DNA of 40,976 nt from Candidatus Vecturithrix granuli. GTDB taxonomy: Bacteria > Moduliflexota > Moduliflexia > Moduliflexales > Moduliflexaceae. The stretch lies in NCBI GenBank assembly GCA_000739535.1, contig DF820464.1:95573-136548 (forward strand), written 5' to 3'. A program made the translations under genes and the position numbers. The first letter of the stretch is position 1, and each line of letters starts with the position of its first letter. Of the stretch, positions 390 to 36,401 are shown one piece after another. The notes under the pieces were generated by a model, which saw nothing but the letters and a program-made list of their open reading frames with translations, was not told the DNA's origin and made no database searches.

Positions 390-1178
390 GTGAAATATTC
401 TCTTATACTCAATTTGTATCATTATAGACATTATATCTGGCGCAATGCCTGGAGTGAATTACGACATCGGTATGCCGGCACGGGAATGGGGATTTTTTGG
501 AATCTGCTTCATCCGCTTGTCGAGATCATGACCTATACGCTGGTATTTTCCTTGCTTTTCTCGCATCGGACGCATGGAATAATGTCTTATCGTTTGTATA
601 TTACAAGCGGAGTGCTCACATGGGGAGTGTTTACAAGTTCTGTTCAGCGCGGCAGCAACACATTTATCGAGCATAGCCGCTATTTGAAACAATTAAATCT
701 TCCTTTAGAAATTTTTGTTGCGAAAATTATTTTGACATTTACTCTGATACTTCATATCTACTACTGCCTCTTTCTGCTAACTAGTACCTTGTTGGGAAAT
801 CCATTGCAATGGAAGTTCCTATTATTACCCATATTTCTGATATTATTGCAGGTATTAGCATTGGGGATGACTCTGATTTTAGCGCATTTACGGGTGTTAT
901 TTCCAGATGTGAAAGAAATGCTTCAGGCGTTTATCACGTTGTGGCGTTGGACCCTGCCAGTGATCTACCCGGAAGAGGTCTTGCCGGAATCCCTTCGCCG
1001 CTGGCTGTTTTTGAATCCTCCTTATGTATTTTTACGCTCAATTCGTGCCCTGATATTAGAACACGCCCTTCCAGGGTGGCAGGACTGGCTGATCATGGGA
1101 ATCTGGATATTTCTTTTGCTGGGATGCGGCATGATCGTTACCCACAAACTTCAACATGATGTCAGAGAATCGCTATGA
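390..1178 (+). CDS. ABC-2 type polysaccharide/polyol phosphate export permease (Wzm-like)
   Basis: A 262-residue integral membrane protein of the ABC2_membrane family. The N-terminus (RNAWSELRHRYAGTGMG.FWNLLHPLVEI) carries the amphipathic segment and first membrane helix typical of Wzm/TagG permeases. About six hydrophobic segments follow, and the length matches the family. With the ATPase next door it should form the inner-membrane exporter that moves a lipid-linked glycan to the periplasm. Start is GTG at 390 with a weak GGAAG upstream; the homology-like N-terminus begins there. The stop overlaps the next start by 4 bp (ATGA), so the two are probably translationally coupled. The substrate cannot be read from the sequence, but the downstream sulfotransferases and glycosyltransferases suggest a sulfated polysaccharide. 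Confidence 0.9.
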   Translation: MKYSLILNLYHYRHYIWRNAWSELRHRYAGTGMGIFWNLLHPLVEIMTYTLVFSLLFSHRTHGIMSYRLYITSGVLTWGVFTSSVQRGSNTFIEHSRYLKQLNLPLEIFVAKIILTFTLILHIYYCLFLLTSTLLGNPLQWKFLLLPIFLILLQVLALGMTLILAHLRVLFPDVKEMLQAFITLWRWTLPVIYPEEVLPESLRRWLFLNPPYVFLRSIRALILEHALPGWQDWLIMGIWIFLLLGCGMIVTHKLQHDVRESL

Positions 1179-10622: not shown

Positions 10623-10642
10623 TATATCTTCCTTACATATTA

Positions 10643-10675
10643 AGAAACCGGGTTTTTCGAAAAAACCCGGTTTCT
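10643..10675. repeat. AAACCGGGTTT hairpin repeat, copy 1
   Basis: A perfect 15-bp inverted repeat (AGAAACCGGGTTTTT and its complement) with a 3-nt loop. It lies between the solute-binding protein gene and asnB, both on the - strand, so it could terminate or attenuate transcription entering asnB. It belongs to a five-copy family in the window (also 19958, 28871, 34188, 36366). Confidence 0.85.
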
Positions 10676-10691
10676 GCACTGTATCCCTTTT

Positions 10692-19957: not shown

Positions 19958-19992
19958 AAAAAACCAGGTTTCTTGAAGAAACCTGGTTTTTT
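19958..19992. terminator. AAACCAGGTTT hairpin repeat, copy 2 (htpG terminator)
   Basis: A perfect 17-bp inverted repeat with a 1-nt loop, beginning with A6 and ending with T6, six bases after the htpG stop. It would act as a terminator in either direction. It is also a member of the dispersed AAACC[A/G]GGTTT family. Confidence 0.85.
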
Positions 19993-20027: not shown

Positions 20028-20669
20028 CTATTGTAATCTGCGTCGCCGCTTCAGCATCGCGCCGAGGCCAAGCAGACCGCCAGCGAATAGCAGCAGCGTG
20101 CCGGGTTCGGGCACCACGCTCGTCGGATTCCCTGGCGTGGCTGTGGGAACCACCACGACGTCGGTCGCGAAACACCAGACCGGACCGGCGGTAGATGCCT
20201 GATACACATCAGTCGCGATCACCTGCCAGCAATAATACTGCCCGCCTGAAAGGGCTTCCGGCGTATATTCCGCCGTGGTCACGGTTGCCTGATACATCAG
20301 GTTCTCCTCCGAGGCGCCCAGATACACGGCATACGCCAGCGGGTCGCCGTCCGGATCGCTGCCCAGCCAGGTCAGCGTCGGCCGCACCGAAACCTCAGTC
20401 GCGTCGTCGGCAATTGACGGCTCAGATGGCGCGTTCGGCGGCTGATTCTGCGAGACCTCTGTGCCGGTTATAGCCGCAAGCACGCGGTTTCCCACGCGGT
20501 CGTACCCAAACGACTGCGTCGCGCCGCTGTCACTCGTACTGCGCAACACACGCCCCATGGCGTCGTAGCTGTAATGCAGCGTCTCACTCCGAACGCTGCC
20601 AGTGAAGAGACATAGCAGGCATACCAGCAGACTGAACAGGTATGCAACATCTTTTCGTTGAACAAACAT
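20028..20669 (-). CDS. Secreted YD-repeat / fibronectin III-like / PEP-CTERM protein
   Basis: A 213-residue protein with a strong AAGGAGG before ATG 20669. It has a signal peptide (VAYLFSLLVCLLCLFTGSVRS). Two YD (Rhs-type) repeats follow (LHYSYDAMGRVLRSTSDSG, then FGYDRVGNRVLAA). Next is an ~85-residue fibronectin III-like domain (PPNAPSEPSIADDA ... LTWLGSDPDGDPLAYAVYLG ... GGQYYCWQVIATD). It ends in a PEP-CTERM tail (VVPEPGTLLLFAGGLLGLG, then KRRRR). By family the tail directs exosortase-dependent surface sorting. The YD part resembles the repeats of the large Rhs protein on the same strand, so it may derive from it. YD repeats and PEP-CTERM in one short protein are unusual. Confidence 0.85.
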   Translation of the reverse strand: MFVQRKDVAYLFSLLVCLLCLFTGSVRSETLHYSYDAMGRVLRSTSDSGATQSFGYDRVGNRVLAAITGTEVSQNQPPNAPSEPSIADDATEVSVRPTLTWLGSDPDGDPLAYAVYLGASEENLMYQATVTTAEYTPEALSGGQYYCWQVIATDVYQASTAGPVWCFATDVVVVPTATPGNPTSVVPEPGTLLLFAGGLLGLGAMLKRRRRLQ

Positions 20670-21340: not shown

Positions 21341-22162
21341 CTATCTTGGCATCAAGTTATTAAAATACTCTCTCCCAACAAGAAAAGAAGTCCCTCCATG
21401 AGGATGCAAGGGGTCTAATATAACGATTCTCCCTGTCAAATCATCATAATATGCTTCTCGTCCTCCTGGTAAGAGCTTTTGATCGCCTCGTTGTATCACT
21501 TCACTGATTAACTCAACAATGTCTTCTATCAACATCCGTGGGTTATGTTTTCGAGCATGGTCGGAAGCAATCTTGTCAATCAGCTCTTTAATGCTCTTAT
21601 TGGTTAAATTTTTTCCACTGTTAATATTCAACGGGCATACCAAATTCATCGCAGCATCTGTAACAATGTCCTGAGGATTGACAGGTAGAAGCATCTCAAG
21701 GAGCCACCCTGGAAGAAAATCTAAGTATCCCTGGATTTTTCCATTCAGTTCAGCCATTGCCTGAGCGTTCTTCTCTAACCCAGGATATTTGATTGCTAAT
21801 CCAAAAGGATCCACCCAATTGACCGGATTATTACCCACGAAGGCATACAGGTTCAGGCCGCTTTGCTCGCCGAGTGGGTCACGTCTATCCCATCGCGCAA
21901 GTTCAGGAAAATAGTTCCTGAATTCATATTGCATCATGCCAACGGGTGCATTGTAACGTTTGGTGGAAAAACCGTAGGGCTGCTCCAAACTGCCGATGTT
22001 GGCGAGCAACACGCCAAACTGATCGTACCGGTACGCCGCAACAACAGACTGCGAGGCATTCAGCACCGTTTCCACGTTGCCTTTACCATCGTACAGATAG
22101 GCGTAGTCAGCGTCATCTTGCTTGAGGTTCAGCAGACCGCCGATGCCGCCGCCGAGGTTCAA
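21341..22162 (-). CDS. Orphan Rhs C-terminal tip 3 with toxin candidate
   Basis: A 273-residue frame lacking the Rhs body. It begins at codons for LNLGGGIGGLLNLKQ, in the middle of the Rhs core, and continues through AYLYDGKGNVE, AAYRYD.FGVLL, RWDRRDPLGE and the hallmark YAFVGNNPVNWVDPFGL. Homology to the full-length gene stops abruptly just upstream of 22162, so this is a displaced tip, not an independently evolved gene. The ~150-residue unique end has LPGGREAYYDDLTGRIVILD, then LHPHGGTSFL and YF. This pattern recalls BECR-fold RNase toxins, which I state only as a possibility. It has no clear ribosome site. Confidence 0.75.
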   Translation of the reverse strand: MNLGGGIGGLLNLKQDDADYAYLYDGKGNVETVLNASQSVVAAYRYDQFGVLLANIGSLEQPYGFSTKRYNAPVGMMQYEFRNYFPELARWDRRDPLGEQSGLNLYAFVGNNPVNWVDPFGLAIKYPGLEKNAQAMAELNGKIQGYLDFLPGWLLEMLLPVNPQDIVTDAAMNLVCPLNINSGKNLTNKSIKELIDKIASDHARKHNPRMLIEDIVELISEVIQRGDQKLLPGGREAYYDDLTGRIVILDPLHPHGGTSFLVGREYFNNLMPR

Positions 22163-22811: not shown

Positions 22812-23855
22812 TTATTTGCATGGGCCGTCATCTTCTGGAAAAACAAACGGTCCCCCAAATTCTGTTTCAGGATCTAGAATTATTTTCGGCCCAAGTAAGA
22901 AATCAGCTCCCGTCAAGAGTGGAATAAGACCAAGATCATCAATAAGTTGACCTAATGGGCTTATATAACGTAAATCTGATTCCTCAAATGTATTTAATGC
23001 ATCCGAATCTTTTATTACGACGGTGGTATAGTCGGGAATTTTGACAACAGTCCCATCGGCAAATATGAGTGTGTCGGGATCATTGTTGGTCGTTATAGAA
23101 GTTCTCCCTGGATTTATTGGGAAAACGACTTGTCCCGGTGTTTGAGGATTACTATATGACGAATAAATTGGATTATCGCCTAAATTGATAATAATTGTAA
23201 GTTTTGGTCTTTGGCCGTAAGGATCTATCCAATTGACCGGATTATTGCCCACAAAGGCGTACAGGTTCAACCCACCGGCTTCGCCGATTGGGTCGCGGGA
23301 ATCCCAACGGACAATCTCAGGAAAATAATTCCGGGCTTCATACTGCACCATGCCAACCGGCGCATTGTAACGTTTGGTAGAAAAAGCATACGGTTGATTC
23401 AAGGAACCAGTTTGGTTCAATAACACACCAAACGGATCATATCGGTATGCTGCCACAACCGCCTGCGTACTGTCAAGGATCGCTTCGACATTGCCTTTGC
23501 CATCATACAGATAGGCATAATTTTGCCCGCCCTGTTTCAGGTTCAGCAGGCCGCCGATGCCACCGCCGAGGTTCAGGCCCCAGGTGTATTCGCGCAGCAC
23601 AGCATTATTTCCGTCTCTGTCCTGAATGACCAGCATCCCATCGCGGATAATGCGCAGGGTGTCAACCAGCACGCCATTCTCGTAGAACTTCTGTTCTGCA
23701 AGGAGATTGTCGCCGCTGCAGAGGAATTCCTGGCGGTGCGCCATGCCGCTGCTGTCGGTGTATGCCAACGAGGTTATACGGTTTTCGGCGTCATACTCGG
23801 CCGTAAACACGTCGCCGTCCTGTGTGTAGCCCTGCGTCAGGTTGCCGTCGGTGTC
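22812..23855 (-). CDS. Orphan Rhs C-terminal tip 2 with toxin candidate
   Basis: Homology to the full-length Rhs protein begins near 23855 (TDGNLTQGYTQDGD). The first usable start is GTG 23810, giving 332 residues; neither has a recognisable ribosome site. The Rhs core follows (VFTAEYDAENRITSLAYTDSSG, then EYTWGLNLGGGIGG, YDGKGNVEAILDS, RWDSRDPIGEAGG) up to VGNNPVNWIDPYG near 23215. The ~133-residue unique tail starts RPKLTIIINLGDNPIY and ends in an acidic stretch before KIILDPETEFGGPFVFPED. I recognise no toxin family. It starts only ~20 bp after the immunity gene of the main Rhs. It is probably a silent cassette that becomes expressed by recombination with the main gene. Confidence 0.72.
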   Translation of the reverse strand, partial: DTDGNLTQGYTQDGDVFTAEYDAENRITSLAYTDSSGMAHRQEFLCSGDNLLAEQKFYENGVLVDTLRIIRDGMLVIQDRDGNNAVLREYTWGLNLGGGIGGLLNLKQGGQNYAYLYDGKGNVEAILDSTQAVVAAYRYDPFGVLLNQTGSLNQPYAFSTKRYNAPVGMVQYEARNYFPEIVRWDSRDPIGEAGGLNLYAFVGNNPVNWIDPYGQRPKLTIIINLGDNPIYSSYSNPQTPGQVVFPINPGRTSITTNNDPDTLIFADGTVVKIPDYTTVVIKDSDALNTFEESDLRYISPLGQLIDDLGLIPLLTGADFLLGPKIILDPETEFGGPFVFPEDDGPCK

Positions 23856-23872: not shown

Positions 23873-24223
23873 TTAATCGCTACGCTCTCTATATTGCTCA
23901 AGTAGTCTCAATGAACGAGTGAAAGCAGACAATATTTGATGGCCAATTGGTGTCATGTCTTCATCATCTGGAAGTTGAGCCAAGAACATTTCAGACGGCA
24001 CAGCTAAATTATCTCCTGCTAGGCATAAGTGCACTGCCGATACCACGCGATGTAAAGATTCGTTAAACTCACGAAGACGTTCGGGATCACAAACTCCTTT
24101 GGTTCCAGGATCGTAAGTATCTCGTGCTTGAATGGTGAGTTCGAACGCAAAACATATTCCTAACATCGCTAATTGCGCTCTGTTTAACTGTTGAATATAT
24201 AATGTTGCTTCCGTCTTTTTCAT
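23873..24223 (-). CDS. Immunity-protein candidate for the full-length Rhs toxin
   Basis: A 116-residue soluble protein starting MKKTEATLYIQQLNRAQLAMLG. Its ATG overlaps the TGA of the large Rhs gene (ATGA at 24223-24220), giving the translational coupling expected for a toxin-immunity pair. It looks all-helical and has no transmembrane segment. I do not recognise a named immunity family. Because it shares the mRNA of the riboswitch-controlled gene, toxin and protection would be regulated together. Function is inferred from position. Confidence 0.72.
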   Translation of the reverse strand: MKKTEATLYIQQLNRAQLAMLGICFAFELTIQARDTYDPGTKGVCDPERLREFNESLHRVVSAVHLCLAGDNLAVPSEMFLAQLPDDEDMTPIGHQILSAFTRSLRLLEQYRERSD

Positions 24224-27200
24224 TCTAAAATCTCCCGGGGAAGACTGTTAATCGGATAACCTCGTTCTTCCAATACTTTAATTCGTGTATTTCCATTAAA
24301 GATTCGCCCATCCGGTTTGACTTTGAGGCTCTCTTTATAACCCGGTTTTAGAGATTCAATAATATCTTCAGTAGATTGTTTGCGCCAGAAGTCCAAACTA
24401 TATTTCCTACTCCCGGTTTCGAGTAGTTCATCAGTATGTATCCGTTTCAAAGGAATTTCAGCTAAATCATCCCATTCTATACTAAAGGGGCACATCAAAT
24501 TCAGAATAGCATCAGTAAATAGAACTTCAGGATCAACCGGCAACAACATGTCAAGTAACCAGTCCGGAAGAAAATCGACATAACCTCTGAGCCGCCCATT
24601 GAGTTGCACAATACTGTCCACATTAAGTGGTGCGATTATTCTGGTTAATCCCCACGGATCGATCCAATTGATTGGATTATTCCCCACAAAGGCATATAAA
24701 TTTATTCCACCAGTTTCGCCCAATCGGTCGCGCGTAAACCACTTGCCAATTTCCGGACCGTATGGCCGGTATTGGTAGAACACCATCCCTGTTCTGGCAT
24801 CGGTGCGTTTGGTGGAAAAGCCAAAGGGCTGATTCAAAGAGCCTGTTTGGTTCAGTAACACGCCAAACGGGTCGTAGCGGTACGCGGCCGCCACATTCTG
24901 CGAGGCATTCAACACCACTTCCACATTCCCTTTACCATCATACAGATAGGCATAGTCAGCGTCGTCTTGCTTGAGGTTCAGCAGGCCGCCGATGCCTCCG
25001 CCGAGGTGCAGGCCCCAGGTGTATTCGCGTACGATGGCATTTTCTCCGTCGCGGTCTTGCAACGCCAGCATCCCGTCGCGGACAATGCGCAGGGTGTCAA
25101 CCAGCACGCCATTTTCGTACACCTTCTGTTCTGCCAGGAGATTGTCGCCACTGTAGCGGAATTCCTGGCGGTACAGCACGCCGCTGCTATCCGTGTATTC
25201 CAACGAGGTCAGGCGGTTTTCGGCGTCATACTCGGCTGTAAACACATCGTCATCCTTTGTGTAGCCCTGCGTCAGGTTGCCGTCGGCGTCGTAGGTGTAG
25301 GCAGCATCCGGATCAGTGGTGGTCAGGAGTTGGTTGGCCTCGTTATGCGTGTAGGCGGTTTTCGTCTCGGCAGCGTCGGGTTCCGGCAGGATGGCTGTGC
25401 CTTCACGGGTCTCACTATCGCGCAGATCCTGATCGTTATAGGTGTAAATATGGCGGCTCAGCACCTCGCCGCTTGACGCGCGGTTCAGGATCTCGGTCAG
25501 TTGATTGAGTGCGTTGTATTGATATGTGGTGGCGCTGCCGTTGGGACGGGTTAATTGCTGCACCAGCGGATTGACACCGGTATAGCTGTAGGTGTAAGCA
25601 TTATCCGCTGTCCCCACCTGAATCTCAGTCAAACGATGGAAGGTATCATACAGGTAAGTCAACGGCGTGCCGGACTCCGGCTGCACACGCGTGCGCTGTC
25701 CGAGGGCGTCGTACTCGTAGCTCAGGGCGTCGGCCTCCCAGGGGCCGTCCACACCGGTGAGTTGAGCATTCGTGTCGTAGCTGTAGCCCCAGGTTCCGAG
25801 ACCATCCGTCATCTGCGTGATCCGGTCGTAGGCGTCATACGAATAGTTAACATCCGGTGTCTCATCGTCATAGCTGATAGCGGTCAGATTACCATTGGCA
25901 TCGTAACTGTAGTTCGCCGCCGTCCCGCGCGCATTGGTGGCACGCGCCACCAGACCGGCATCATTATACTCCCAGTTCACGGTATCGCCGTTCGCATAAC
26001 TTTTCTGAATCACGCGATTATCCAGATCGTAATCAAAGGTCGTGACCTGTTGTTCCGGATTCGTCAGTTGGATCAGGTTGCCGTTGGAGTCGTAGGCATA
26101 CTGCGTCACGCCGCCTTCGGGATTCGTGCTGCTGATCAGGCGTTTCAAGGCGTCATACGTGAACTCAGTCGCGCGTCCGGCGCGGTCGGTCGCCCTGTCC
26201 ACCAGACGAGGACAACAGCCGGAATAGGTGTAGCTTTCAGAGCGACCATCCGGATAGGTGACCGCCGTGATGTGATTCAGGTCATTATAGGTGTAGGTCA
26301 GGGTCAGTCCGGTCGCATCGGTCGCCGTGTCCACCCGGCCGAGAGCGTCGTAGGTAAATTCTGCGATCACCTGCCCGTCGCGGGTCACCTGAGAAAGCCG
26401 CCCCTTCGGGTCATACACATACGCGCTCAACCCACCCAGAGCGTCCCGCTGCGAGGCGAGTTGACCGTCATCGTGATAGCTGAAGCTCGTGGTGTGTCCC
26501 AGGCGGTCGGTGATGGCGGTGACATCATGGGCGTCATTATAGGTCAGAGTCAGCGTGCCCAGACCGTTGTCGATTCGTTCCAGGTCCACCCCGTTGGCCG
26601 CATAGCTCAGCGTGGTCATCTGTCCTTTCGCGTCGGTGACCGATGTGATGCGTCCCTGCTCGTTGTACGTGTACGTGGTCGTCCCCAGGGTCGTGGTCAC
26701 GCTGCGACGATTGCCGTCGTCATCATAGCTATAGGTGATCGTGTCGCCTTCCGGAGATGTAACCTGCGCGATTTCCCCGATACGGGTCGCTGCGGAAACG
26801 TTCGTGAAGGTATAACGGGTTTTCGGGACATCGTCGGCCGCATTATTGTGAGACGGACTCTCATACTCGACATAATCTCTGGGACTGACGTACCAGCTTT
26901 CCCCACTGACGCTCTCGTAATAATACTCTGTGCGCCCGCCCAGCGGATCGGTCACGGTCAGACGATAATTTTCTCCCATCGCCATGCCCGGGGCCGGATA
27001 CGACATGACGCCAGACGTTTCGCCGTCGGCAGGTTCAATCGCAAATTCCCAGGTCCCGCGCGCATTCTGCAAGGCCGTGAGGTAGGACTGGTCATCGTAA
27101 CTAAATCTCGTCCAATAGCCGCCCATATCCGTAATCTGACTCAAGCGGCGATCTTCGTCATACGCCAGGGTCGCGCGACGGCCAAAGGGATCCTCCACCG

Positions 27201-28416
27201 CTTCAAGCAGACCATCGTCGGTATAGCTGAAGGTGGTCGTCTGGTTCAACGCATCGGTGATGCTACTCACATGCCCATCAGTAGTGTATGCCAGCGTGAG
27301 CTGGTGCCCGTGCGCATCCTGCATCCCGGTCAACACCGGCTGCGACAGCGACGCGCCGTCTGGCACGCGATAGAGAAACAGACTGTCATCTGGAAAGCGC
27401 AGCGTGAATTCTGTATCGGAATGCTTTGTCAGCGTGTTCCACACGTGATACGGCGGCTGATAGGCTCCGGAGTCCTCCAGCGTATACCTCTCCTGGCGAC
27501 CGTCGGGCATCACGACGATGACCGATCCGTCAGATTCACGTTCGATGTAACTGGAATAAGCCATCTGCCACTTACGCCCCACAGGCCCGACATCTTCTGT
27601 CACGTTGGCCTGCGAGTTATAACTCAGCACCAGCGAGACCGACGGTCCAAGTGCCGGATTATACCACAAGGGCACATCTTTGACATACAGATTCAAATTC
27701 ACCATATTGACCGACCAGATCGGCGAGCCGCAGGCATCTTGCGGATCCGCATCCGGTTCACCCTTATTGCGGCCAGGATCGCCGAGCGGACTGAAGGGCC
27801 TGGGCGTCCACTGTTCGAGCGGCGTGGTGGTCGGCTCTGGCGTGAAGGTCGGGGCCGGGGTGGGCGTAGGCTCCGGCGTTGGTGTGGGCGTGGGTGTGGG
27901 CGTCTCCTCTACCCACTCTTTCCAGGTGGTCGTTTCCTCATATCCGGCGCATTCATTGCTACATTCCACAAATTGCTGGTCGGAACCGGTATACTTTGAC
28001 GGGCATGTCTGCAAGACCGTCCTGTCACAGTCTCCCTCTCGCATCCACAGGCGGCTGCATTCGGAGATCTGTAACGTATAGGTGACGCTTTCGAGATAAC
28101 TGATGCCCGGCACCGGCGTCCCGGAGGCATGAAACTCCTCGGGCGGGTCCAGGGGATAGGGATCCCTGAGGGTCGGTTCCGTATACTCGTAATGAGACTG
28201 ATCGCCTTCACAGCGCGGCGTGATGGGATACTCGCCATCCCAACACGCCAGGCCCCAGCATCCGGTCTGATGGGTATATTTCGTGGTTTCATTGATAAGA
28301 TGGTCGCTGATGAAAATCGTGGTTTTCCAATAGCCGGCGGCAAATCCGTGTTGGCTCGTGAGACAGAGCAGCGCCAGGAAGAGGCCCAGCGTCCATCCCT
28401 GCTTTCCCTGTGTCAT
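24220..28416 (-). CDS. Full-length secreted YD-repeat/Rhs polymorphic toxin
   Basis: A 1398-residue protein. ATG 28416 is chosen because it starts a good signal peptide (WTLGLFLALLCLTSQHGFAA). The GTG extension to 28500 would cross the terminator region. Order: a Cys-rich N-terminal domain, a Pro/Thr/Glu spacer (PTPTPTPEPTPTPAP), a beta-rich entry domain (NLYVKDVPLWYNPALGPSVSL), then ~25 YD repeats (such as YSYDDDGNRRSVTT). The Rhs core ends VGNNPINWIDPWGL near residue 1256. The ~142-residue tip has a linker shared with tip 3, then EDIIESLKPG, PDGRIFNGNTRIKVLEERGY, a ParB/Srx-like pattern. Such shells encapsulate a toxic tip and deliver it to neighbours. A c-di-GMP-I riboswitch and terminator lie upstream. 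Confidence 0.9.
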   Translation of the reverse strand: MTQGKQGWTLGLFLALLCLTSQHGFAAGYWKTTIFISDHLINETTKYTHQTGCWGLACWDGEYPITPRCEGDQSHYEYTEPTLRDPYPLDPPEEFHASGTPVPGISYLESVTYTLQISECSRLWMREGDCDRTVLQTCPSKYTGSDQQFVECSNECAGYEETTTWKEWVEETPTPTPTPTPEPTPTPAPTFTPEPTTTPLEQWTPRPFSPLGDPGRNKGEPDADPQDACGSPIWSVNMVNLNLYVKDVPLWYNPALGPSVSLVLSYNSQANVTEDVGPVGRKWQMAYSSYIERESDGSVIVVMPDGRQERYTLEDSGAYQPPYHVWNTLTKHSDTEFTLRFPDDSLFLYRVPDGASLSQPVLTGMQDAHGHQLTLAYTTDGHVSSITDALNQTTTFSYTDDGLLEAVEDPFGRRATLAYDEDRRLSQITDMGGYWTRFSYDDQSYLTALQNARGTWEFAIEPADGETSGVMSYPAPGMAMGENYRLTVTDPLGGRTEYYYESVSGESWYVSPRDYVEYESPSHNNAADDVPKTRYTFTNVSAATRIGEIAQVTSPEGDTITYSYDDDGNRRSVTTTLGTTTYTYNEQGRITSVTDAKGQMTTLSYAANGVDLERIDNGLGTLTLTYNDAHDVTAITDRLGHTTSFSYHDDGQLASQRDALGGLSAYVYDPKGRLSQVTRDGQVIAEFTYDALGRVDTATDATGLTLTYTYNDLNHITAVTYPDGRSESYTYSGCCPRLVDRATDRAGRATEFTYDALKRLISSTNPEGGVTQYAYDSNGNLIQLTNPEQQVTTFDYDLDNRVIQKSYANGDTVNWEYNDAGLVARATNARGTAANYSYDANGNLTAISYDDETPDVNYSYDAYDRITQMTDGLGTWGYSYDTNAQLTGVDGPWEADALSYEYDALGQRTRVQPESGTPLTYLYDTFHRLTEIQVGTADNAYTYSYTGVNPLVQQLTRPNGSATTYQYNALNQLTEILNRASSGEVLSRHIYTYNDQDLRDSETREGTAILPEPDAAETKTAYTHNEANQLLTTTDPDAAYTYDADGNLTQGYTKDDDVFTAEYDAENRLTSLEYTDSSGVLYRQEFRYSGDNLLAEQKVYENGVLVDTLRIVRDGMLALQDRDGENAIVREYTWGLHLGGGIGGLLNLKQDDADYAYLYDGKGNVEVVLNASQNVAAAYRYDPFGVLLNQTGSLNQPFGFSTKRTDARTGMVFYQYRPYGPEIGKWFTRDRLGETGGINLYAFVGNNPINWIDPWGLTRIIAPLNVDSIVQLNGRLRGYVDFLPDWLLDMLLPVDPEVLFTDAILNLMCPFSIEWDDLAEIPLKRIHTDELLETGSRKYSLDFWRKQSTEDIIESLKPGYKESLKVKPDGRIFNGNTRIKVLEERGYPINSLPREILE

Positions 28417-28500
28417 GATAAAGATAAATGGCGTCCTGTGCAATGGAGGCCTGCCGAAACGATGGTGCGCGTCAGAAGGCTCACGATGCCAGACCCTCAC

Positions 28501-28539
28501 AAAAAAACGCCGGAGACCACGGGGAGTCGTCCGGCGTTT
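28501..28539 (-). terminator. Intrinsic terminator, expression platform of the riboswitch
   Basis: Read on the - strand: a 10-bp stem AAACGCCGGA / TCCGGCGTTT with a 15-nt loop, running straight into a stretch of seven T (28507-28501). It lies between the c-di-GMP aptamer (12 nt downstream of its 3' end) and the Rhs start codon (84 nt further). The segment CGCCGG of the left arm also occurs in the aptamer's 3' part, so alternative pairing is possible. Confidence 0.85.
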
Positions 28540-28550
28540 CTACGCACATA

Positions 28551-28630
28551 CCAGGCAACCCGGCGATCCTGCGTTATCAGGACCCGTGGCTTTCCGTCCC
28601 CACCTTACGATGGGTTTGGCGTGTTCAGGT
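28551..28630 (-). ncRNA. Cyclic di-GMP-I (GEMM-I) riboswitch aptamer
   Basis: On the - strand, 5' to 3': ACACGCCAAACC, then the stem CCCATC-GTAA-GGTGGG with a GNRA tetraloop. GGGACGGAAAGCC follows, then ACGGGTCC, a second stem TCCTG/CAGGA, and the closing GCCGGGTTGCC. This is the conserved GEMM-I plan: tetraloop hairpin, AAAGCC joining segment, tetraloop-receptor hairpin and 3' GGGTTGCC. The usual GGCAAACC and ACGCAAAGCC become GCCAAACC and ACGGAAAGCC, one G-to-C and one C-to-G change. As I recall the Vc2 structure, these two bases pair with each other, so the changes would compensate. It sits ahead of the Rhs gene and its terminator. Confidence 0.88.
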
Positions 28631-28632
28631 AA

Positions 28633-28674
28633 TAAAATACAACAGAGAAAAAAAGATACTGTCAATCCTGTCAA
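28633..28674 (-). promoter_or_regulatory. Candidate promoter for the riboswitch-Rhs transcript
   Basis: Two TTGACA boxes in tandem on the - strand (28674-28669 and 28665-28660) precede a TATTTT (28639-28634). The spacing of 20 from the nearer box is long. Position just upstream of the aptamer is right, but the -10 is weak. Confidence 0.35.
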
Positions 28675-28870: not shown

Positions 28871-28907
28871 TAAAAAACCAGGTTTCTTCAAGAAACCTGG
28901 TTTTTTA
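28871..28907. repeat. AAACCAGGTTT hairpin repeat, copy 3
   Basis: A perfect 18-bp inverted repeat with a 1-nt loop, A6 at the left and T6 at the right. The core is the same as copy 2 after htpG. It is not directly behind a gene here, so it is a repeat first and only possibly a terminator. Confidence 0.85.
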
Positions 28908-36365: not shown

Positions 36366-36401
36366 AAAAACCGGGTTTCTCGAAGAAACCCGGTTTTTTT
36401 A
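36366..36401 (+). terminator. AAACCGGGTTT hairpin repeat, copy 5 (terminator)
   Basis: A perfect 15-bp inverted repeat (AAAAACCGGGTTTCT and its complement) with a 3-nt loop and a T7 tail, ten bases after the FrdB-like stop. Confidence 0.85.

What the first reader, a model, noticed from the sequence alone, without database searches (positions are those of the whole stretch)
28416..28640. A c-di-GMP-I riboswitch with terminator appears to control an Rhs polymorphic toxin
On the - strand, GCCAAACC, a GTAA-capped stem, GGGACGGAAAGCC, ACGGGTCC, a second stem and GCCGGGTTGCC follow the GEMM-I plan. A strong intrinsic terminator comes next, then the 1398-residue Rhs gene. The two departures from the usual sequence (G to C, and C to G) fall at positions I recall as paired in the Vc2 aptamer, so they may covary. 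GEMM switches usually govern motility, pili, exopolysaccharide or chitin-binding genes. Contact-toxin control by c-di-GMP would link inter-bacterial killing to the switch to surface life. The sign of regulation cannot be read by eye; CGCCGG occurs both in the aptamer and in the terminator stem.
Basis: partly seen in the sequence, partly recalled or inferred. Interest (0 to 1): 0.9.

Follow-up and report, generated by a model that had tools for sequence, protein, structure and literature searches.

The report
c-di-GMP riboswitch before an Rhs toxin
An RNA switch of the known class that senses the bacterial signal c-di-GMP lies directly in front of a gene for a large secreted Rhs protein with a predicted toxin tip; the same pairing occurs in two unrelated bacteria, so control of this weapon by that signal looks real, although which way the switch works is unproven.

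Summary
The aptamer at 28629-28550 (-) passes Rfam's thresholds (RF03167 66.4 bits, cut-off 59; RF01051 66.8 bits, cut-off 35). A strong terminator hairpin and the 1398-residue Rhs gene follow. The two 'departures' are a true compensatory pair (C21-G46), present in all 29 GEMM-I sites of this genome and all 11 in three relatives, and reversed (G21-C46) in all 12 sites from other lineages. This site keeps G20 and A47, so c-di-GMP is the expected ligand. GEMM-I directly upstream of a secreted Rhs gene recurs in two genera of an unrelated family and heads an Rhs-ending operon in a third: rare but not unique. Coupling is less clear than at sibling sites: in 17 of 29 the terminator's 5' arm is the aptamer's own 3' strand; here the terminator can fold beside the aptamer. 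A competing antiterminator that would make c-di-GMP an OFF signal is predicted, but not beyond chance (47/600). I found no paper reporting a c-di-GMP riboswitch on an Rhs gene. Known RNA class, apparently new target. Ligand binding, sign of control and toxicity are inferred, not tested.

The parts
28550..28629 (-). c-di-GMP-I (GEMM-I) riboswitch aptamer; P1 = ACC/GGU at 28630-28628 and 28551-28549; GUAA tetraloop; G20, A47 and the C21-G46 pair kept
   Evidence: cmscan RF03167 66.4 bits, RF01051 66.8 bits; key positions tabulated
28501..28540 (-). intrinsic terminator: 15-pair hairpin (28540-28504) running into seven U (28507-28501)
   Evidence: -21.7 kcal/mol, z -4.8
28516..28535 (-). terminator 5' arm and loop, predicted to be captured by an alternative antiterminator (28535-28524 with aptamer 28561-28550; 28523-28516 with aptamer 28590-28583)
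   Evidence: MFE at transcript lengths 114-121; not beyond chance
28660..28674 (-). two TTGACA boxes, possible -35 elements; no good -10 found
   Evidence: sequence; promoter scan negative here
24220..28416 (-). Rhs gene, 1398 aa: Sec-type signal peptide (by eye), Pro/Thr-rich linker, 12 RHS repeats, Rhs-associated core (aa 1181-1257), DPWGL boundary, C-terminal tip
24223..24645 (-). variable C-terminal tip (aa 1258-1398), presumed toxin; GNTR motif reminiscent of the Tox-ParBL1 motif of Zhang et al. 2012
   Evidence: no Pfam or PDB match; cassette alignment; motif read in PMC3482391
23873..24223 (-). 116-aa ORF overlapping the Rhs stop by 4 nt, candidate immunity gene
   Evidence: position and size; no family match
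22812..23810 (-). orphan Rhs core plus different tip (332 aa), followed by a 99-aa membrane-like ORF at 22670-22371
21341..22162 (-). second orphan Rhs core plus tip (273 aa), followed by a 72-aa ORF at 21336-21118
20028..20669 (-). 213-aa secreted protein with RHS repeats and a PEP-CTERM sorting signal at the end of the array
   Evidence: PF07589 3.7e-6, PF05593 8.8e-5

Best explanation
The leader of the Rhs gene carries a genuine c-di-GMP-I riboswitch aptamer followed by an intrinsic terminator, and c-di-GMP tunes how much transcription reads through into the Rhs gene and its overlapping small ORF. Most likely sign: OFF. Without ligand, the nascent RNA can refold so that the aptamer's 3' strand (28561-28550) and P3 5' strand (28590-28583) hold the terminator's 5' arm and loop before the 3' arm is made, letting polymerase pass. 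With c-di-GMP bound, the aptamer keeps those strands and the terminator forms. The Rhs protein is exported by the Sec route and acts at the cell surface, probably as a contact toxin with a swappable tip. Shown: aptamer, terminator, gene order, covariation, recurrence elsewhere. Inferred: ligand binding, co-transcription, sign, toxin activity.
For: Rfam hits above threshold. Lineage-specific compensatory pair C21-G46, 40/40 versus G21-C46, 12/12. G20 and A47 retained. Strong terminator between aptamer and gene. Sibling switches in the same genome show aptamer/terminator exclusion in 17 of 29, so transcriptional attenuation is the rule here. GGDEF (GGEEF) domains in this genome mean c-di-GMP can be made. 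GEMM-I sits directly upstream of secreted Rhs genes in G065 (90.3 bits) and G122 (85.6 bits), two genera of another family, and heads an operon ending in an Rhs gene in G078. For the sign: the antiterminator is the MFE at transcript lengths 114-121 (-44.8 versus -37.9 for the forced canonical aptamer at 117), and at full length is 1.7 kcal/mol better than canonical aptamer plus terminator, so ligand energy could flip it.
Against: The unconstrained full-length MFE (-56.8) contains the terminator without ligand, 4 kcal/mol below the antiterminator, so read-through would need kinetic trapping. The antiterminator is not beyond chance: duplex test 155/500, joint-fold test 215-280/500, no-terminator energy 47/600. 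None of the other Rhs-core loci in this genome (C17, C19, C21) has a GEMM hit near it, and the same-family relative G001 has none beside its Rhs fragment. No promoter was identified and no transcript data exist.
Confidence: 0.66

Rival explanations
1. The aptamer and terminator are an attenuated or relic unit no longer coupled to each other: the hairpin terminates constitutively and the Rhs gene is mainly read from its own promoter between 28500 and 28416, or at a low leaky level.
For: Terminator and aptamer fit side by side in the MFE, unlike most siblings. A weak promoter-like match lies at 28442-28415 (9 of 12). Expression-platform complementarity is within chance.
Against: The aptamer shows no decay in its core. 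The same gene pairing recurs in unrelated genomes. The promoter match overlaps the start codon.
Confidence: 0.22
2. It is an ON switch: c-di-GMP raises Rhs expression, so killing rises with surface life.
For: 17 of 29 sibling platforms have the ON layout, where the terminator's 5' arm is the aptamer's 3' strand.
Against: This site lacks that layout: one of the last 22 aptamer bases pairs downstream in the MFE, against 8-20 in those siblings. The alternative fold found here is of the opposite sense.
Confidence: 0.15
3. The aptamer senses c-AMP-GMP (3',3'-cGAMP) rather than c-di-GMP.
For: Four of 29 sites in the same genome carry A20, the base associated with the c-AMP-GMP subclass (from general knowledge of GEMM-Ib), so both ligands may be in use in this cell. 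c-AMP-GMP variants exist within GEMM-I (PMC7266159).
Against: This site has G20.
Confidence: 0.06
4. The Rhs protein is not a toxin but a surface or matrix protein, like the other exported members of this riboswitch regulon.
For: Many downstream genes are PEP-CTERM or other exported proteins, and the array ends in an RHS fragment with a PEP-CTERM. The tip matches no toxin family.
Against: Three cassettes share a 73-78% identical core and then diverge after DPxG (16-30% over the last part), each followed by a small ORF, the hallmark of polymorphic toxins. G065 and G122 Rhs genes also end in distinct tips with small ORFs.
Confidence: 0.25

Closest known systems
c-di-GMP-I (GEMM-I) riboswitches, RF01051 / RF03167, e.g. 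Vc2 upstream of tfoY in Vibrio cholerae
   Same: Aptamer fold, ligand-contact positions G20 and A47, cis position in a 5' leader
   Different: C21-G46 in place of G21-C46; target is an Rhs gene rather than motility, pilus, chitin, competence or signalling genes
c-di-GMP control of type VI secretion (TfoY in Vibrio, PMC6618264; Agrobacterium, PMC6771610)
   Same: Low c-di-GMP goes with antibacterial killing, the same sense as the OFF switch predicted here
   Different: There control is through regulators or secretion machinery; here it would act directly on the toxin's own mRNA
c-di-GMP riboswitches upstream of PEP-CTERM genes in Methylophaga nitratireducenticrescens GP59 (PMC12530212)
   Same: Riboswitches ahead of exported PEP-CTERM proteins, as in this genome's regulon
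   Different: No Rhs gene among the targets listed there
Rhs / YD-repeat polymorphic toxins with Sec signal (Zhang et al. 2012, PMC3482391)
   Same: Signal peptide, RHS repeats, DPxG boundary, variable tip, small downstream ORF, orphan cassettes
   Different: No recognised toxin or immunity family; leader carries a riboswitch, a feature that paper's held text does not mention

Membership tests
c-di-GMP-I riboswitch (RF01051, clan CL00126) | Covariance-model score above the curated cut-off over the full model | tested here: met
   66.8 bits vs 35, model 1-87
c-di-GMP-I riboswitch (RF01051, clan CL00126) | Base pair 21-46 next to the ligand pocket | tested here: met
   C-G here, kept by compensatory change across lineages
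c-di-GMP-I riboswitch (RF01051, clan CL00126) | G20 (c-di-GMP) rather than A20 (c-AMP-GMP) | tested here: met
   G20 at this site
c-di-GMP-I riboswitch (RF01051, clan CL00126) | Ligand binding and ligand-dependent gene control | not testable with these tools
   needs in-line probing and transcription assays
c-di-GMP-I-GGC variant (RF03167) | Score above the curated cut-off | tested here: met
   66.4 bits vs 59
c-di-GMP-I-GGC variant (RF03167) | Model's consensus G at the position equivalent to A47 | tested here: not met
   A at this site (alignment), so I do not file it as a GGC variant; both models score alike
Transcription-attenuating riboswitch | Mutually exclusive aptamer and terminator, or aptamer and antiterminator | tested here: inconclusive
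   antiterminator predicted but not beyond chance
Rhs polymorphic toxin | RHS repeats and Rhs-associated core | tested here: met
   PF05593 1.3e-74, TIGR03696 3.6e-21
Rhs polymorphic toxin | Conserved core with divergent tips in orphan cassettes | tested here: met
   73-78% identity before DPxG, 16-30% over the last 110 columns
Rhs polymorphic toxin | Recognised toxin domain in the tip and immunity family in the small ORF (usual, but not required: many tips are unclassified) | tested here: not met
   no Pfam or PDB match; single-sequence structure model useless, pLDDT 36
Rhs polymorphic toxin | Toxicity neutralised by the adjacent gene | not testable with these tools
   needs expression in a laboratory strain

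The most novel reading that the evidence does not exclude
Direct riboswitch gating of a contact-toxin gene by c-di-GMP, acquired independently in unrelated phyla, with c-di-GMP acting as an OFF signal so that killing is released when cells leave the sessile state.
Probability: 0.35. Interest if true: 0.7.

Novelty: new member of a known kind. Interest (0 to 1): 0.52.

Why it matters
It would place an interbacterial weapon under the direct control of the molecule that sets motile versus sessile life, without a protein regulator in between, and the same pairing in unrelated genomes gives independent systems in which to test it. A genome with about 29 such switches, both ON-like and OFF-like, mostly ahead of exported proteins, is also a natural panel for comparing expression platforms built on one aptamer type.

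Tried and rejected
Uniqueness of the G/C swap to this site: rejected, it is lineage-wide. Regulation shared by all Rhs loci of the genome: rejected, only this one of the Rhs-core loci is near a GEMM. G066 as a further GEMM-Rhs case: rejected, its GEMM precedes a 372-aa protein and the Rhs fragment is 10 kb away. Relatives of the tip in genome contigs: none by tblastn. Rhs-core scan of genome contigs: three loci, all from one Phycisphaerales MAG, not pursued. Single-sequence structure prediction of the tip: unusable, so no fold search was made. The first attempt to forbid the terminator was set up wrongly (it left the platform unpaired); replaced. In one search the position labels are off by one for this lineage; one search replaces it. 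Literature for a c-di-GMP riboswitch on Rhs, YD-repeat or polymorphic-toxin genes: nothing found; the library lacks most subscription papers.

Full report
What was checked. The window's whole-length Rfam scan returns a c-di-GMP-I type aptamer at 28629-28550 on the minus strand (RF03167, 66.4 bits, cut-off 59); the classical model RF01051 gives the same place 66.8 bits against 35. The Rfam alignment covers the full model: P1 (ACC/GGU), the GUAA-capped P2, and the P3 strands. The hairpin at 28540-28504, followed by seven U, is far stronger than shuffled sequence (z -4.8). The next gene on the strand is the 1398-aa Rhs gene, 28416-24220.

The odd bases. In 29 own-genome sites and 11 sites of the three nearest relatives the pair is C-G; in 12 sites from other lineages it is G-C. 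That is a clean compensatory change fixed in one lineage. It supports the RNA fold, but it says nothing special about this locus. It also argues that the 29 sites belong to one organism although the assembly is rated 10.75% contaminated. Four of the 29 (C18:511148, C4:76917, C18:508542, C21:116509) carry A20, which from general knowledge of GEMM-Ib predicts c-AMP-GMP; the site in question has G20.

The regulon. Reading the genes after the 29 sites shows mostly exported proteins: PEP-CTERM proteins, large repeat proteins, and a set that ends in the same pentapeptide LLWTK. Two platform layouts are visible by eye and by folding. In 17 sites the aptamer's 3' strand is itself the terminator's 5' arm, the ON layout. 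In about six (R01, R02, R04, R08, R12, R19) it can pair with the terminator's 5' arm, the OFF layout. The automatic duplex test cut several OFF-type platforms too early at a first run of U, so it is not a fair positive control for them; the OFF assignment is by inspection. GGDEF domains in two of the fetched stretches show that the genome can make c-di-GMP.

How this site could work. In the unconstrained full-length fold the terminator stands beside an aptamer-like fold (-56.8 kcal/mol). As the RNA grows, at lengths 114 to 121 the best fold is different: 70-81 pair with 96-107 and 41-48 pair with 108-115, which disrupts the ligand core and holds the terminator's 5' arm and loop (transcript position p is window 28631 minus p). 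Forced at full length this fold scores -52.6, against -50.9 for canonical aptamer plus terminator. Ligand binding would therefore favour the terminator: an OFF switch. Three chance tests do not make this significant: joint folding 215-280 of 500, duplex 155 of 500, and random terminators of the same composition 47 of 600. I therefore call the sign likely, not shown.

Recurrence. I searched 249 genomes of one other class for GEMM-I and for the Rhs core and compared the listed positions by eye. Two genomes of one family of that class, in different genera, have GEMM-I directly upstream of a giant secreted Rhs gene: G065 C9:42368-42454 with a 2402-aa ORF, and G122 C54:134735-134822. The G122 Rhs reading frame changes once near its N-terminus in this assembly, which I report and leave as it is. 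G122's platform shows, by inspection, a terminator whose 5' arm (CUCCAC) can pair with the aptamer's P1 3' strand (GUGGAG), again an OFF layout. G078 has a GEMM (50.7 bits) at the head of a tight five-gene run whose last gene is an Rhs ORF of more than 2950 aa. In 32 further genomes with both elements no other direct case was seen. The pairing is rare. A rough estimate by my own arithmetic: with about 29 switches, about four Rhs loci and some 7000 genes, chance adjacency in this genome is about 2%.

The Rhs gene. It carries a Sec-type signal by eye, a Pro/Thr linker, RHS repeats, and a tip after DPWGL. Two orphan core-plus-tip cassettes follow. Cores are 73-78% identical, tails far less, and each tip is followed by a small ORF. 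This is polymorphic-toxin anatomy as described by Zhang et al. 2012 (PMC3482391). The tip matches no Pfam family or solved structure. Its GNTR motif fits the [NT][RT][RT] pattern given there for Tox-ParBL1, a lead only. The array ends with a 213-aa protein that has RHS repeats and a PEP-CTERM.

Literature. Low c-di-GMP is already linked to antibacterial type VI secretion through TfoY in Vibrio (PMC6618264) and in Agrobacterium (PMC6771610). That Vc2 lies upstream of tfoY is from my own knowledge. PEP-CTERM genes behind c-di-GMP riboswitches are reported in Methylophaga (PMC12530212). I found no report of such a switch on an Rhs gene.

Verdict. Real riboswitch of a known class, apparently new kind of target, recurrent but rare, sign and toxicity unproven.

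Noticed in passing
own genome, 31 places, e.g. C18:477690-521701 and C4:77755-90281; loci L098-L127: About 30 otherwise unrelated, mostly exported proteins end in the same C-terminus, typically SYLLWTK*. The stop-anchored DNA pattern occurs 31 times here against 1 in a reversed-pattern control, and 0-1 times in each of 58 other genomes, including the same family and order. No relevant paper mentions it. It looks like an undescribed C-terminal sorting tag; about a third of the GEMM-I sites lead into such genes.
   Followed up: partly
own genome C18:511148, C4:76917, C18:508542, C21:116509: Four GEMM-I aptamers carry A20, predicting c-AMP-GMP sensing, in the same genome as 25 G20 aptamers.
   Followed up: partly
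own genome C14:491403-491909: Three GEMM-I riboswitches in tandem, each with its own ON-layout terminator, ahead of one 1350-aa exported protein.
   Followed up: no
C20:94220-94298 (+), 1.3 kb before window position 1: Another GEMM-I site leads through a Pro/Thr-rich exported protein into the ABC-2 transporter-like gene at window 390-1178 and the following genes.
   Followed up: no
window 10642-10676, 19958-19992, 28872-28906, 36383-36399: A dispersed palindrome like AAAAAACCAGGTTTCTTGAAGAAACCTGGTTTTTT lies at gene borders, three times as a pair of inverted halves; 7 matches against 0.01 expected. It may act as a two-way terminator or REP-like element.
   Followed up: partly
window 40971-40926 (-): Acido-Lenti-1 RNA, 45.5 bits above its cut-off of 37, an RNA of unknown function.
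   Followed up: no
own genome C15:68327, C18:508542, C18:516605: Three GEMM-I aptamers are enlarged to 130-139 nt by AT-rich inverted inserts in the P3 loop.
   Followed up: no
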